Shown piece after piece: positions 52,306 through 58,550 of a stretch of 64,000 nt of DNA (position 1 is its first letter; the number at the start of each line of letters is the position of its first letter). This DNA comes from Nitrospinota bacterium. Its GTDB lineage: Bacteria > Nitrospinota_A > UBA7883 > JACRLM01. The translations under genes and the position numbers were made by a program. Under the pieces are notes generated by a model, which was given only the letters and a program-made list of their open reading frames with translations, was not told where the DNA came from and made no database searches. The stretch spans positions 931,015 through 995,014 of the forward strand of contig JACQXA010000004.1 in assembly GCA_016208975.1 (NCBI GenBank), in the 5' to 3' direction.

Positions 52306-53433
52306 TTGAATATAGCCATTGATATTCGCACGATTAATAAACCCAGGTCGGGTGTTGGCTATTACGTAACAAATTTGATCAAAAAGCTTCAGGACATAGA
52401 CCTGGAGAACAATTACTGCCTCATCTCCAACAACGGCGAATACGAGCATACTTTCCGGCAACAGCCCAATTTCGAGAACCACCGCACATGGGTTTCCAAT
52501 GAAAACCATTTAATCGGGGATTTTTGGGAAAATTTCTGTTTGCCGTCGGTCCTGAAAAAAAAGGGGGTGGACGTGTTCCACGGCCCGGCATTCATGGTGC
52601 CGCTGAAAAAATACCCCAAAACCGTGGTTACCATCCACGACATCGTGTCGTTCATAATGCCCGACACCATCCCAAGAAAATACGCCTTTTACATGCGTAT
52701 GCTCATAAGCCTTGTGGCCCGGAGGGCGGACAGGATCATATCGGTGTCCGAGTCCACCAAGAAGGACCTTATGGAGTGGCTCAGGGTTCCCGAAAACAAA
52801 ATATCGGTGGTGCACCAGGCGGTGAGCGACCGGTTTCGACCCCCGGCTCCCGGCGAGGACAGCCTGCGGGGTTTGCGGGAAAAATTCGGCATCCGCGGCA
52901 AATACATGCTTTTCGTTGGCAACCTGGAGCCGCGCAAGAACCTTACCCGGCTCATGGAAGCCTTCGCTTCCTCCAAAAACAGGCTGGGGGACGATTATCA
53001 GCTTGTGATATGCGGCAAAAAGGGCTGGTTGTATAACGACATTCTGAACGCCTGCGACCAGCTTAAGGGCGCCAACGACATCGTTATTACAAACTACGCC
53101 AGCGAAGATGACCTGCTCCACCTTTACCAGAACTCAGACATGTTCGTTTTCCCTACCCGTTACGAGGGGTTCGGCCTGCCGGTGCTGGAGGCCATGGCCT
53201 GCGGGGCGCCGGTGATAACCTCCAACATTTCCTCTTTGCCCGAAATCGCCGGAGACGCGGCCCTGCTGATAGACCCTTTGAGCGTGGATGAAATAAGCCG
53301 GGCCATGATAAAGCTTTCCAACAATCCCGGCCTCCGGGCGGAGATGAGGGAAAAAGGCTTTAAACAGGCCGCCAAATTCTCATGGATGGACACCGCCAGG
53401 CAAACCCTGGAAGTCTATCGCTCCATAGCCTGA
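52306..53433 (+). CDS. Family 4 (GT-B) glycosyltransferase
   Basis: 375 residues from TTG 52306 with GGGGGA 8 nt upstream. Donor-site motifs FVGNLEPRKNL, PTRYEGFGLPVLEAMACG and PVITSNISSLPEIAGDAA are those of mannosyl/glucosyltransferases. Continues the polysaccharide run after a 129-bp gap holding no recognised gene. Confidence 0.9.
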   Translation: MNIAIDIRTINKPRSGVGYYVTNLIKKLQDIDLENNYCLISNNGEYEHTFRQQPNFENHRTWVSNENHLIGDFWENFCLPSVLKKKGVDVFHGPAFMVPLKKYPKTVVTIHDIVSFIMPDTIPRKYAFYMRMLISLVARRADRIISVSESTKKDLMEWLRVPENKISVVHQAVSDRFRPPAPGEDSLRGLREKFGIRGKYMLFVGNLEPRKNLTRLMEAFASSKNRLGDDYQLVICGKKGWLYNDILNACDQLKGANDIVITNYASEDDLLHLYQNSDMFVFPTRYEGFGLPVLEAMACGAPVITSNISSLPEIAGDAALLIDPLSVDEISRAMIKLSNNPGLRAEMREKGFKQAAKFSWMDTARQTLEVYRSIA

Positions 53434-53447
53434 CTTCCATCCCCCCC

Positions 53448-54512
53448 ATGGGCGCCATCAGAGCCGCTATTTTGCTCCTGGCGCTGAGCGCCGGAATGTC
53501 GTGGGGAGAGCCTGCATTCACCACGTCCCTGGTGTTCCCTCCGAAATCTTTCGGAAGGCCCCACGGCGCGTCCCTGGTGGAGCTGAAAAACGGGGACATC
53601 ATGGCCAGCTGGTTCTCCGCCAAAGAGGAAACCCACGCCGACGCGGAAATATACGGCGCCGTGTTAAATAAAAAAACCGGGGTGTGGGGCGCGCCTTTCA
53701 CCATAATCCCCAAGGGGTATTCCAAATCCGTGGGAAACACGGCCCTGTTCCGGGATGACGACGGGTTGATATGGATGTTTTTCGCCTCGGTGCGCATCGG
53801 GGGGTGGAGCGGGGCGATGGTGGACTATGTCACCTCAGCCGATGAGGGGAAAACCTGGACCAGCGGCGCCACTTTCACCGCATGGCCCGGCAACCTGCCG
53901 CGAAACATCCCCATAAAAACCGGCGACCACCAGATGCTCATCCCTCTATTCGTGGATTTCTGGTACGAGGCCAACCTGGTGGGGGCCTATACCGCGCTGG
54001 TGGATTACAGGGATGGGGCGGTTGTCTCCAAAAAATACGCCTCGCTGGAGGATACCGACGCCATCCAGCCCACCCTTGTAAAACTGCCCGATGGAAAAAT
54101 CTTGATGCTGGCCCGGGACAAGTCTGACCGGTTCATCCGCCGGGCTTATTCATCGGACGGGGGGTTAACCTGGGGTCCCTCCACCATGACAACCCTGCCC
54201 AACCCCGGCGCGGGGATATGCGCCATTTATGTAGAGGAGCTAAAGGCCGTCCTTTTGGCGTACAACCATTCCCGCAAGGGGCGCAACCCGTTGTCGCTGG
54301 CGGTGTCCACCGACAACGGCCGCCGGTTCAGGAAAATAACCGACCTGGAGAGCAAGCCCGGGGATACGGAGGCCTCTTTCGACTACCCGGCCATGATAAG
54401 AGCGGCGGATGGGACCATACACCTGATATGGACCCACGACAACCGCGCCACCCTGAAACACGCCCGGTTCAACGTGGAATGGCTCCGCTCACGGATTTCC
54501 GGGGCGCGGTAA
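53448..54512 (+). CDS. Exported sialidase-like (BNR repeat) protein
   Basis: 354 residues from ATG 53448. Signal peptide (IRAAILLLALSAGMSWG), then a six-bladed propeller: FGRPHGASLVELKNGDIMA, TSADEGKTWTSGAT, SSDGGLTWGPS and STDNGRRFRK are Asp-box (SxDxGxxW) units. Two of the four units seen have the full SxDxGxTW. The arginine triad of true sialidases cannot be assigned safely, so it may be a glycan-binding or other glycoside hydrolase. Starts 12 nt after the GT4 gene. Confidence 0.75.
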   Translation: MGAIRAAILLLALSAGMSWGEPAFTTSLVFPPKSFGRPHGASLVELKNGDIMASWFSAKEETHADAEIYGAVLNKKTGVWGAPFTIIPKGYSKSVGNTALFRDDDGLIWMFFASVRIGGWSGAMVDYVTSADEGKTWTSGATFTAWPGNLPRNIPIKTGDHQMLIPLFVDFWYEANLVGAYTALVDYRDGAVVSKKYASLEDTDAIQPTLVKLPDGKILMLARDKSDRFIRRAYSSDGGLTWGPSTMTTLPNPGAGICAIYVEELKAVLLAYNHSRKGRNPLSLAVSTDNGRRFRKITDLESKPGDTEASFDYPAMIRAADGTIHLIWTHDNRATLKHARFNVEWLRSRISGAR

Positions 54513-55612: not shown

Positions 55613-55652
55613 GCCCATCCGGGCCAACGTTTCCGGATTGGGCTGTTTTTTA
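55613..55652 (+). terminator. Intrinsic terminator of folE
   Basis: GCCCA-TCCGG (55613-55622) pairs with CCGGATTGGGC (55633-55643) with one bulge, followed by a T-run to 55652. It overlaps the stop codon of the convergent subunit IV gene. Confidence 0.7.
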
Positions 55653-56138
55653 AGTAACGGCGCCCAATATCGAAAACAGCACAACAATAAACGCTCCCAC
55701 GCCGCCTATTATCATGGCCACCGGGCGTTTGCGATAGTCCCGCTCCTTGCCGCCCCGGTCTATGAAGGGCGCCGCCAGCAACACCATCACCGCAACCCCT
55801 TGCATCACGATGCCTAAAAGCTTGGGAGCCCACGACCCCAGGAACTCCAGATACTGGGCCACTTTCAGGCTGTAGAAAGCCGCCAGAAAATACCATTCGG
55901 GCTTGATGTGGGCTGGCGTATCGAAGGGGTCGGCCTTTGGCCCCAAATGGGCTGGAACCACCGTGGAAAGGGTGACCAGTATCATCAGCACCACACCGCA
56001 GATTATCACCTGCTCCAGCACGTGATGGGGGAAGAACCAATGCGCCTTACCCTCGGCTATAAGGCGCTTTTTCTCCTCCATGGGGAGAGCCTTCACCTCG
56101 AACTCTTTCTTCTGGGAAAATCCGCTTTCGCCGCTCAT
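55650..56138 (-). CDS. petD: Cytochrome b6f-type subunit IV (C-terminal half of cytochrome b)
   Basis: 162 residues. The Qo-site PEWY is present in DTPAHIKPEWYFLAAFY, with three membrane helices (VIICGVVLMILVTLSTV, LLGIVMQGVAVMVLLAA, MIIGGVGAFIVVLFSIL). Separate from the heme-binding half, as in b6f-like complexes. Last gene of the operon, 44 nt after cytochrome b. Confidence 0.85.
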   Translation of the reverse strand: MSGESGFSQKKEFEVKALPMEEKKRLIAEGKAHWFFPHHVLEQVIICGVVLMILVTLSTVVPAHLGPKADPFDTPAHIKPEWYFLAAFYSLKVAQYLEFLGSWAPKLLGIVMQGVAVMVLLAAPFIDRGGKERDYRKRPVAMIIGGVGAFIVVLFSILGAVT

Positions 56139-56182
56139 GGCAATGCAGTCCTAATCAACGAGTGTCTCCATTCAATCAACTG

Positions 56183-56884
56183 TCATAGGGGGCCGGATAT
56201 GCCCTGTCTTCTGATCTGCAAAAGATGCAGGCCCACCACCCCGGCGGTCACTATGGGTAAAATCATAATGTGGATCGCGAAAAACCTGGTAAGTGTAACC
56301 TGTGAAATCTCCTCGCCGCCCCGCATGGCGTACCTTAATGACTCCCCGATATAGGGCAGGGCCGCCGGTGTCTCCGTGCCCACCACGGTGGCCCAATAGG
56401 CCAGCTGTGTCCATGGAAGCAGGTAGCCGGTGAACGACAGCCCAAGGGTAAGAAGCAGAAGGGTAACCCCCACCACCCAGTTCAGTTCCCTTGGCGCCTT
56501 GTATATGCCGTAAACGTATATCTTCGCCATGTGGATAATAATGGCGATTATCATCAGGTTGGATCCCCAGGCGTGCAAGCCCCGGATAAGCCAGCCGAAC
56601 GGCACCTCGTTCATGACCTGGGCCACCGAAGCGTGGGCGCTTTCTATGGTTGGCTGGTAGTAAATCAGCAATAGCGCTCCGGTGACAATCTGGTTTAGGA
56701 ACAGGAAAAAGCTTATCCCCCCGAAACACGACCACAGCCCAAGATACGCCGGGGATATTTTTTCAAATACCTCATCGTTCATTATCTCTTTTATGGCCAG
56801 CCTGTCGTCCACAGCCGAAAAAAGCCGGATTGCCAGCTTGTTGCGGATCTTGATGGGCCCCAGTTTCAGAACGCTTATTTCCAT
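56183..56884 (-). CDS. petB: Cytochrome b6-type subunit (N-terminal half of cytochrome b)
   Basis: 233 residues from ATG 56884 with four membrane helices. Heme-ligand histidines in GLHAWGSN, IIHMAKIYVYG, FFAIHIMILP and VGLHLLQI; the spacing of the last two is close to the b6 type. Transfers electrons from quinol across the membrane. A long upstream extension in the same frame is unsupported. 8 nt after the Rieske gene. Confidence 0.9.
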   Translation of the reverse strand: MEISVLKLGPIKIRNKLAIRLFSAVDDRLAIKEIMNDEVFEKISPAYLGLWSCFGGISFFLFLNQIVTGALLLIYYQPTIESAHASVAQVMNEVPFGWLIRGLHAWGSNLMIIAIIIHMAKIYVYGIYKAPRELNWVVGVTLLLLTLGLSFTGYLLPWTQLAYWATVVGTETPAALPYIGESLRYAMRGGEEISQVTLTRFFAIHIMILPIVTAGVVGLHLLQIRRQGISGPL

Positions 56885-56892
56885 AACGGCCT

Positions 56893-57354
56893 TCAGGCCT
56901 CCTCTATCACTATGTATTCGTTTTCCAGCCGCGCCGAGTACGAGGGGAGCGGCTTGGGGGGCGGGCCGCCGAGCACCACACCTTTGGTGTCGAACCTGCC
57001 GCCATGGCAGGGGCACAGAAGCTCTTGGGTGGAGTCGTTCCATTTCACCACGCAACCCAGGTGGGTGCAGATGGCGGACAAGGCGTAAAGCTCCTGCTCG
57101 TTGGGGCGGATAATCACCGCGGGTTTGTTGAGGAACCGCACGAACTTGGCCTCGCCAATGGGCACTTCGGCCGATGATATCTTCATGGACTTGGCGGCGG
57201 CCTCTTTCTTCCCCTCCCGTGGCCACAGGAACATCCCCAATGGGTAAACGAAGCCGAATGCCGCAAGCGCGCCAGACACCCACAGGCTTATGTTGAGAAC
57301 CCTGCGGCGGGTCTCGCCGTTTCCGTCGGCCGCAAGGCCGGTTTGCGTGGTCAT
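56893..57354 (-). CDS. petC: Rieske iron-sulfur protein of a bc/b6f-type complex
   Basis: 153 residues. Membrane anchor (VLNISLWVSGALAAFGFVYPLG) then the 2Fe-2S binding motifs CTHLGC and CPCHGGRFD. Carries electrons from quinol at the Qo site to the next carrier. The N-terminal RRRVLN may be part of a Tat signal. Second in the operon, 26 nt after the pentaheme gene. Confidence 0.92.
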   Translation of the reverse strand: MTTQTGLAADGNGETRRRVLNISLWVSGALAAFGFVYPLGMFLWPREGKKEAAAKSMKISSAEVPIGEAKFVRFLNKPAVIIRPNEQELYALSAICTHLGCVVKWNDSTQELLCPCHGGRFDTKGVVLGGPPPKPLPSYSARLENEYIVIEEA

Positions 57355-57380
57355 TACCCTTTTAAACCTCTTTACCGCCG

Positions 57381-58550
57381 CTATTTATAACCTTGAGAGG
57401 ATTCCGCCTGGTCCCGGTTCATTTCAACCCGCATCTCGGTTTCCTGCATTATGACCGGTGTGTAAAGGTAGTCCACCCATACCGATAAGGAAACTTTTTT
57501 ACCCTCTGGCACGTAGAAGGTGAACCGCTCCTTGCGGGTCTCTTTCGGGTAAATGCGGTTGTCCTTGGCCACGGTGAAGCCATAGCCCAGCATTATCTCC
57601 GCGTCGGAAGTCAGCTCCGCTCCGCTTTTGTCGAATATGGCCTTTTCGTAAACCACCTTGTCTTTATAAACCTTGCCGCCGGGCACCCGCACCTCGCAAT
57701 ACAGTATCAGCTTCCTGGTGGGAATCCCGGTGGGAACCCGGTGGCCGGAACCCACGTTGGTCACATCCACCAATACCGTCATCCTGTCGGCGGAACGCTC
57801 AACCTTGGCGATCTTCAGCGCCAGCGCTTTCTGGAGCTGGGTCAATGAATGCGCCCCGGCCAGATGGTGGCTGAATATCTTCGGCCCCCGCTCGCTAATC
57901 ACGTTGTTGGATATTTCTCCGGGGGCCTCCTGCATGTGGCAATACTGGCATGGCCTGCCTTCTTTGGAATAGGAGCTTTCCATCCACTCGCTGTAGGTGG
58001 ATATGATGGGCACGCCGTTCAGCGAGTACTCGTGGCAAGTGGCGCAGAACGCGGCCTCCCCCTGTATTTTTGAATAGGCCACCTTGTGCTGTTTTACATC
58101 GCCTTTTTTGTTCGGGCCGTATTTGACAGGCCCGGCGTCCACCACAAACGGATTGTCCTTCTTCTTTAAATCCACACTTTTAACGCTGTGGCAGAAGTCG
58201 CAAGTGATGCCTTCGGAGGTGGGAGCCTCGTCAAGATTCAGTATATTGTTCCCTTTGGCGGATGGGGCGTGGCATCGCAGGCATATCTTCGCCGCGCCGC
58301 CGCCGCTTTTATAGTGGGCCTCCAGGTATGAAGCGCGGAATATGGGGTCTTCCGTGGCCTTGGCGTGCATGGATTCCTTCCACATGTTGTACAGCCTGGT
58401 GTGGCATTTTCCGCACACCTCGCTCCCGGTGAACCCCTTTTCGTTTATCTTTATGGATTCCGGGGCCGCCTGCCCCACAGCCTGCCGCATTGGAAACAGC
58501 GTGACCGCCAACCCCAGGGCTATCAAAGACAGAAGCTTTAAACCGCGCAT
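57381..58550 (-). CDS. Exported pentaheme cytochrome c
   Basis: 389 residues from ATG 58550. Signal peptide (LKLLSLIALGLAVTLFP), then five CxxCH heme sites: CGKCH, CLRCH, CDFCH, CATCH and CQYCH, all in the N-terminal half, followed by a beta-rich C-terminal domain with NVGSGHRVPTGIPTRK. The heme part resembles cytochrome c554-like multihemes. First gene of the Rieske/cytochrome b operon, so it probably receives electrons from the complex in place of cytochrome c1 or f. Confidence 0.85.
   Translation of the reverse strand: MRGLKLLSLIALGLAVTLFPMRQAVGQAAPESIKINEKGFTGSEVCGKCHTRLYNMWKESMHAKATEDPIFRASYLEAHYKSGGGAAKICLRCHAPSAKGNNILNLDEAPTSEGITCDFCHSVKSVDLKKKDNPFVVDAGPVKYGPNKKGDVKQHKVAYSKIQGEAAFCATCHEYSLNGVPIISTYSEWMESSYSKEGRPCQYCHMQEAPGEISNNVISERGPKIFSHHLAGAHSLTQLQKALALKIAKVERSADRMTVLVDVTNVGSGHRVPTGIPTRKLILYCEVRVPGGKVYKDKVVYEKAIFDKSGAELTSDAEIMLGYGFTVAKDNRIYPKETRKERFTFYVPEGKKVSLSVWVDYLYTPVIMQETEMRVEMNRDQAESSQGYK

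What the first reader, a model, noticed from the sequence alone, without database searches (positions are those of the whole stretch)
55650..58550. b6f-like complex with a pentaheme cytochrome in place of c1 or f
The operon order is pentaheme cytochrome, Rieske, cytochrome b6 and subunit IV. No c1 or f gene is present, while a cytochrome with five CxxCH sites and a separate beta-rich domain is the first gene. It probably takes electrons from the Rieske centre and hands them to several partners.
Basis: partly seen in the sequence, partly recalled or inferred. Interest (0 to 1): 0.55.

Follow-up and report, generated by a model that had tools for sequence, protein, structure and literature searches.

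The report
Five-heme respiratory complex, a b6f variant
This bacterium's quinol-oxidising respiratory complex, a relative of the photosynthetic cytochrome b6f complex, appears to pass electrons out through a five-heme protein instead of the usual one-heme cytochrome; related multiheme versions are already known, but this particular four-gene set recurs in several bacterial phyla and I found no description of it.

Summary
On the minus strand, 58550-55650 holds a tight four-gene operon: a pentaheme cytochrome (PHC, 389 aa), a Rieske protein, cytochrome b6 and subunit IV. No canonical c1 or f gene was found in the genome, which is rated complete.

PHC is a known fold. Its AlphaFold model (pLDDT 91) matches Thermochromatium tepidum penta-heme cytochrome c552 (Z 30.4, 320 residues aligned) and ends in an Ig-like beta domain. 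Five extra conserved histidines beside the five CxxCH histidines predict five bis-His hemes: a wire, not a reductase.

In 24 genomes of the phylum (relatives are named Nitrospinota), all 19 with this type of Rieske/b6 carry PHC next to it. The same gene order occurs in MAGs named Nitrospirota, Acidobacteriota and Dadabacteria. Two homologues in that position carry a C-terminal membrane helix, as c1 and f do.

Best reading: PHC is the electron exit of a menaquinol-oxidising b6f-like complex. Whether it is a bound subunit or a soluble partner here, and whether it serves "several partners", is untested.

The general idea is published (Nitrospina, Kuenenia, ANME-2d, Geobacter ext). This is a new variant of a known kind.

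The parts
57381..58550 (-). Pentaheme cytochrome (PHC), 389 aa: signal-like N-terminus, five CxxCH motifs (residues 46-50, 90-94, 117-121, 169-173, 201-205), C-terminal Ig-like beta domain from about residue 241
   Evidence: Pfam PF13435; NCBIfam ExtKL NF040886 at 78.8 bits, below its cut-off of 250; AlphaFold pLDDT 91; matches 5ze8 with Z 30.4, rmsd 2.4, 320 aligned
56893..57354 (-). Rieske [2Fe-2S] protein, 153 aa: twin-arginine-like N-terminus and one hydrophobic helix (by eye and by the simple scan on relatives), CTHLGC...CPCHGG (no Ser at the usual CPCHGS position, Phe at the usual Tyr position)
   Evidence: PF00355; nearest PDB relatives are b6f Rieske proteins; motif table
56183..56884 (-). 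Cytochrome b6, 233 aa: four heme-ligand His, 14 residues between the two His of the last helix, Cys aligned with the heme c_n (c_i) cysteine position of b6
   Evidence: PF00033 E 3.5e-55; best PDB match is cyanobacterial b6, E 2.4e-62, with a Cys aligned to Cys
55650..56138 (-). Subunit IV (PetD-like), 162 aa, with PEWY quinol-site motif
   Evidence: PF00032 E 3.9e-14; TIGR01156 54 bits, below its cut-off of 127; PEWY

Best explanation
The operon encodes a menaquinol-oxidising Rieske/cytochrome b complex of b6f build whose high-potential electron leaves through a pentaheme cytochrome instead of cytochrome c1 or f. Inferred steps: menaquinol is oxidised at the site made by cytochrome b6 and subunit IV; one electron goes to the Rieske cluster and from there to PHC, which spreads it over five bis-His hemes and passes it to periplasmic acceptors, probably cytochrome c oxidases or their carriers; the other electron recycles through the b hemes and the probable heme c_n. 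Shown here: the genes, motifs, linkage, predicted fold and absence of canonical c1/f. Not shown: binding, direction, redox potentials and partners. In this lineage PHC is probably exported and held peripherally; in some other lineages it has its own membrane anchor.
For: 19 of 24 phylum genomes have the type-1 Rieske/b6; PHC lies next to the Rieske gene in all 19 (in one, G009, the contig ends inside the Rieske gene). On the PHC tree linkage is clustered: 9 changes against 25.8 for shuffled labels, 0 of 500 shuffles as low. Five non-CxxCH His are conserved in the 28 bc-linked rows examined (27 of 28 for H234), enough for one distal ligand per heme. Three of 37 bc-linked PHC rows have a C-terminal membrane helix; two of these (L107, L112) stand directly before Rieske and a fused cytochrome b. 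No canonical c1 or f. A gene of the menaquinone-pathway family PF02621, a COX1/COX2 oxidase and a cbb3-type oxidase are present.
Against: PHC of this genome has no membrane anchor beyond its signal-like segment. PHC relatives often stand away from any Rieske gene (45 of 84 rows, with L077 corrected), and one membrane-anchored PHC sits beside an NrfD-like gene instead (L106), so PHC is also a general module. In L101 the Rieske/b genes lie on the opposite strand to PHC. Starred branches of the tree force at least 5 changes of the link, against a single origin. The search for a c1/f substitute covered PF02167 and PF01333 only; other cytochromes c of the genome were not surveyed. No complex was modelled.
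Confidence: 0.7

Rival explanations
1. PHC is a soluble general-purpose electron carrier that merely shares an operon; the Rieske protein passes electrons to several soluble cytochromes, or to another c-type cytochrome encoded elsewhere, and PHC is no fixed c1/f substitute.
For: Only an N-terminal signal-like segment and no anchor; two further PHC paralogues in the same genome without Rieske neighbours in the stretches seen; PHC relatives stand beside other membrane modules such as NrfD; other cytochromes c of the genome were not surveyed.
Against: Linkage in 19 of 19 genomes with the type-1 complex; the window's PHC falls in a group of 19 rows, all linked (support 94/92); membrane-anchored homologues in the same gene position.
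Confidence: 0.17
2. The complex runs backwards: PHC receives electrons from outside donors and drives menaquinone reduction (reverse electron transport).
For: Nitrospina gracilis, of the same phylum name, is a nitrite oxidiser in which reverse flow through its bc complex is proposed (PMC3578206 passages); the PHC family includes cytochromes proposed for extracellular electron transfer (PMC11976967 passages).
Against: A cbb3-type and a COX1/COX2 oxidase are present and would need electrons from cytochrome c (recalled; CuA ligands not checked); dsrA is present, so sulfur electrons could enter at the quinone level, though the direction of Dsr was not tested; of 6 molybdopterin-enzyme frames the largest is 993 aa, shorter than the 1235 positions of the narG model.
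Confidence: 0.08
3. PHC is a reductase (for example of selenite) fed by the complex, as suggested for its relative ExtKL.
For: NCBIfam ExtKL is the best named match; a related structure is a selenoprotein, MccSep.
Against: The Sec position of MccSep is Ile in the window, and neither Cys nor Sec in any of the 56 aligned rows; each heme has a conserved candidate distal His, leaving no open iron by prediction; the ExtKL score is far below its cut-off (78.8 against 250).
Confidence: 0.05

Closest known systems
ext gene cluster of Geobacter sulfurreducens (ExtKL 5-heme, ExtM, ExtN, Rieske ExtO, cytochrome b ExtP, ExtQ; PMC5877670, passages read)
   Same: A pentaheme cytochrome related to PHC in one cluster with a Rieske protein, a short b-type cytochrome and a small membrane protein
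   Different: There a 12-heme and a 10-heme cytochrome lie between the pentaheme and the Rieske gene, with porin, rhodanese and lipoprotein genes besides, and ExtKL is a predicted selenoprotein; here four genes only and no Sec/Cys at that position
Rieske/cytochrome b complexes of anammox bacteria, Kuste4569-4574 and Kustd1480-1485 (PMC12954380, passages read)
   Same: b6-like cytochrome b, separate subunit IV, multiheme cytochrome instead of cytochrome f
   Different: Hexa- or octaheme with membrane helix, five-helix subunit IV and an NAD(P) oxidoreductase; the window operon has none of these. The second complex of this genome (outside the window) does resemble them
bc-like operon of Nitrospina gracilis with an octaheme cytochrome (PMC3578206, passages read)
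   Same: Same phylum name, b6f-like Rieske plus split cytochrome b; [quoted passage not shown]
   Different: Atypical octaheme instead of this pentaheme; homology between the two was not tested here
Rieske/cytochrome b cluster of Methanoperedens with two pentaheme cytochromes (PMC4683180, passages read)
   Same: Pentaheme cytochromes encoded with Rieske and cytochrome b
   Different: The authors also list a c1/f-type cytochrome; both pentahemes carry an extra CxxxCH; homology to PHC was not tested here
Penta-heme cytochrome c552 of Thermochromatium tepidum (5ze8) and the cable-bacteria pentaheme family (PMC11976967, passages read)
   Same: For c552, the fold of nearly the whole PHC: Z 30.4, rmsd 2.4, 320 residues aligned
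   Different: No Rieske/b partner was mentioned in the passages read ('Rieske' does not occur in the main text of that paper)

Membership tests
Rieske/cytochrome b (bc/b6f) superfamily | Rieske protein with two Cys and two His cluster ligands, and diheme cytochrome b | tested here: met
   PF00355 and PF00033 over cut-off; CTHLGC...CPCH; four His in b6 visible in the sequence
b6f-type (not bc1) core | Split b6 + subunit IV, 14 residues between the ligands of the last b6 helix, heme c_n cysteine (features recalled) | tested here: met
   Two genes; spacing and Cys read from the sequence and from its alignment to b6 chains. Heme c_n itself was not shown
Cytochrome b6f complex proper | Cytochrome f | tested here: not met
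   No PF01333 match in the genome; 2 of 14 control genomes ring
Cytochrome bc1 complex proper | Cytochrome c1 | tested here: not met
   No PF02167 match in the genome; 1 of 14 control genomes rings
Pentaheme c552/ExtKL fold family | Five CxxCH plus C-terminal Ig-like domain with the overall fold of 5ze8 | tested here: met
ExtKL equivalog | Score over the curated cut-off; Sec or Cys at the selenoprotein site | tested here: not met
   78.8 bits against 250; Ile at the site aligned with U325 of MccSep
Anammox-type Rieske/b complex | Five-helix subunit IV and NAD(P) oxidoreductase gene in the operon | tested here: not met
   Subunit IV 162 aa; the operon ends at 55650 next to folE on the other strand
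Any Rieske/b complex | PHC reduced by Rieske, stable complex, Q cycle | not testable with these tools
   Needs biochemistry or a complex model

The most novel reading that the evidence does not exclude
PHC is a further, phylum-crossing class of electron-exit subunit for Rieske/cytochrome b complexes, beside c1, f and the anammox type: one pentaheme module with an Ig domain that has been swapped between Rieske/b and NrfD quinol-oxidising complexes, sometimes soluble and sometimes given its own membrane helix or lipid anchor, and that shares its fold family with extracellular electron-transfer cytochromes.
Probability: 0.4. Interest if true: 0.6.

Novelty: new variant of a known kind. Interest (0 to 1): 0.42.

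Why it matters
Cytochrome c1 and f are unrelated proteins that fill the same seat in otherwise homologous complexes (recalled). Another, multiheme occupant that recurs in several phyla, and whose anchoring differs between lineages, offers a natural series for asking how a soluble acceptor becomes a fixed subunit. It also suggests how Nitrospinota and some Acidobacteriota may connect menaquinol to oxidases without c1/f, which annotation by c1/f models would score as an incomplete complex III.

Tried and rejected
Rejected: chance CxxCH motifs (family score, fold and conservation say otherwise). Rejected: a canonical c1 or f elsewhere in the genome; other c-type partners were not surveyed. Rejected: PHC as an ExtKL selenoprotein. 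Rejected: detectable sequence similarity of PHC to the multiheme cytochrome of the second Rieske/b complex (BLAST best E 0.59). My ORF picker masked some genes by longer antisense frames, and the b6 reference was in the wrong frame; gene order was therefore taken from tblastn with corrected references. The first alignment A1 held one row on the wrong strand (L007) and was replaced by A2. L077 was first labelled 'not linked' because its genes overlap by a few bases; it was corrected. Rows left out of the tree: 6 of 84 (L120 twice, L062, L095, L118, L084; long, truncated or at a contig edge). A3 used the window plus 55 of the 73 locus proteins listed as suitable; its 28 bc-linked rows are 28 of 37. 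Signal peptides and membrane helices were judged by hydrophobicity alone. Plasmid search: 18 records with distant matches only, not followed. Absences in VIA-align are not used as evidence. Literature searches: (25 of 97 papers listed); I saw no description of this four-gene set in those listings or in the passages read. Most listed papers were not opened, and most subscription papers are not held, among them Ten Brink et al. 2013 (cited inside PMC4683180, not read).
Full report
What is there. The minus strand from 58550 to 55650 carries four genes in a row: pentaheme cytochrome (PHC), Rieske protein, cytochrome b6 and subunit IV, separated by 26, 8 and 44 bases. A long ORF that reads like methionyl-tRNA synthetase (by eye, not scanned) starts divergently upstream; folE (PF01227) faces the operon downstream. 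Pfam names all four operon genes above its cut-offs. At E 0.001 NCBIfam has no model above cut-off for any of them; the best for PHC is the (seleno)protein ExtKL (78.8 bits, cut-off 250), and for b6 a general b6 model and ExtP.

The genome. The window lies in a 2.97-Mb genome in four contigs, rated 100% complete. Relatives carry the names Nitrospinota, Nitrospinales and Nitrospirae, so I take it as Nitrospinota-like; no tool names the organism. It has no match to cytochrome c1 (the control rings in Caulobacter) or cytochrome f (the control rings in Synechococcus and, unexpectedly, Thermotoga). Other cytochromes c were not surveyed. It has a gene of the menaquinone-pathway family PF02621, a COX1 gene with a COX2 gene beside it, a COX1 gene followed by FixO and FixP (cbb3 type), and dsrA over its cut-off (572 bits against 392.85). 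The direction of the Dsr pathway was not tested.

The core is b6f-like. Cytochrome b6 aligns over nearly its whole length with cyanobacterial b6 (E 2.4e-62), Cys on Cys at the place that holds heme c_n (c_i), and with 14 residues between the last two heme-ligand histidines. That these two features mark b6 against bc1 is recalled. Subunit IV carries PEWY. The Rieske protein reads CPCHGG followed by RFD, so it lacks the Ser and Tyr that raise the potential in classical Rieske proteins (recalled). Among the rows whose Rieske motif can be read only L104, whose neighbours are of another type, has Ser there. A lowered potential, fitting menaquinol, is inferred and not measured.

PHC. The AlphaFold model from 56 sequences has mean pLDDT 91.0 and pTM 0.85. 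Foldseek finds T. tepidum penta-heme cytochrome c552 first (5ze8, E 2.4e-18). The second aligner gives Z 30.4, rmsd 2.4 over 320 residues, 24% identity; the other 49 rows shown match only the Ig-like part, within residues 231-389, at Z 11.3 or less. Besides the five CxxCH histidines, H62, H155 and H270 are kept in 56 of 56 rows; H228 in 28 of 28 bc-linked and 23 of 28 unlinked rows, H234 in 27 of 28 and 21 of 28. Five distal candidates for five hemes predict bis-His coordination and an electron-transfer role; which His serves which heme was not determined. The position of selenocysteine in MccSep (U325 by the entry name, alignment) is Ile here.

Linkage within the phylum. PHC relatives were found in 23 of 24 genomes at E 1e-10. 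The closely related type-1 cytochrome b6 (57-100% identity) is in 19 genomes and the type-1 Rieske in the same 19. In all 19 the PHC gene lies next to the Rieske gene; in G009 the contig ends inside the Rieske gene and part of b6 is on another contig. Of the other five genomes, G001, G002, G003 and G008 have PHC relatives and G023 has none; none of the five shows the type-1 pair, though G001 has a 44% cytochrome b near a contig end without a Rieske match.

Linkage beyond the phylum. The genome-contig scan gave 254 loci with a PHC relative; the best 80 were kept, as 79 distinct loci, so the rest were not seen. In 31 of 79, PHC stands directly before Rieske on the same strand, with cytochrome b following in 30 (L070 ends first). 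In L091, L122 and L124 the PHC lies downstream of the complex instead; in L101 the complex lies on the opposite strand; in L104 the neighbours are of the second, anammox-like type. In L107, L112 and L089 cytochrome b and subunit IV are fused, and further multiheme cytochromes follow.

Tree. With 78 of 84 PHC rows, the linked label needs 9 changes against 25.8 in shuffles (0 of 500 as low). The window's PHC falls among 19 rows that are all linked (support 94/92). Starred branches force at least 5 changes, so linkage was gained or lost several times. That speaks against a single origin and for a module that can move.

Anchoring. Of 37 linked PHC rows, 32 have a hydrophobic N-terminal segment at the threshold used; two of the other five are truncated. 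One of 37 matches a strict lipobox (L091); three more acidobacterial rows (L088-L090) have a Cys at a similar place without matching it. A C-terminal membrane helix occurs in 3 of 37 linked rows (L104, L107, L112) and in 1 of 43 unlinked rows (L106, beside an NrfD-like gene by eye). So an anchored PHC in the c1/f position exists, but anchoring is not exclusive to Rieske/b clusters, and the window's own PHC has no anchor beyond its signal-like segment.

Mechanism. The most likely working is a menaquinol-oxidising complex with Rieske-to-PHC transfer and delivery to periplasmic acceptors. Shown: genes, motifs, predicted fold, linkage, absence of canonical c1/f. Inferred: the Q cycle, direction, contact and partners.

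Known background. Nitrospina gracilis: b6f-like operon with an octaheme (PMC3578206, passages). Kuenenia: hexa- or octaheme instead of f (PMC12954380, passages). Methanoperedens: two pentahemes in the Rieske/b cluster (PMC4683180, passages). Geobacter: ExtKL 5-heme with ExtO Rieske and ExtP cytochrome b (PMC5877670, passages). Cable bacteria: a pentaheme family with Ig-like domain related to ExtKL and c552, and through c552 to an archaeal nanowire cytochrome (PMC11976967, passages). The general kind is therefore known. What I did not find in the searches made is this minimal four-gene arrangement and its spread.

Noticed in passing
L033:5355-10938 (G000:C4 about 67.9-73.4 kb, outside the window): A second Rieske/cytochrome b cluster: Rieske, b6, five-helix subunit IV, a cytochrome with five CxxCH and a hydrophobic N-terminus, and a GltD-like NAD(P) oxidoreductase with ferredoxin domains, as described for anammox complexes. 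Similar sets by tblastn in L076 (Aminicenantes), L104 (Armatimonadetes) and, without the multiheme match, L101 (a Proteobacteria bin); a b6 of this type (43-47% to the window's) is in 12 of 24 phylum genomes.
   Followed up: partly
L141:4378-6015 (G000:C1 about 336.4-338.0 kb): One protein joins cytochrome b, ferredoxin and FlpD/MvhD domains, next to a SCO1-like gene and a COX1 gene.
   Followed up: no
L039:5262-9384 (G015): Behind the same operon a second PHC (38%), a tetraheme protein, an unidentified 299-aa ORF and an NrfD protein follow.
   Followed up: partly
L107:4913-8463 and L112:5340-8889: PHC with C-terminal membrane helix, Rieske, fused cytochrome b-subunit IV, then a multiheme cytochrome with a C-terminal hydrophobic stretch.
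   Followed up: partly
L144 (G000:C1:212000-226000): A bd-oxidase-like protein between one-CxxCH and two-CxxCH cytochromes, beside a molybdopterin enzyme and DsrO/DsrP-like genes (DsrP over its cut-off); recalls the bd-like oxidase set described for Nitrospina (PMC3578206 passages).
   Followed up: no
L052:6040-8801 (G004): Another PHC (36%) stands before a 377-aa cytochrome b of a different kind that carries one CxxCH.
   Followed up: no
window 53382-54512: A BNR-repeat (sialidase-like) protein, PF13088 E 5.4e-54.
   Followed up: no
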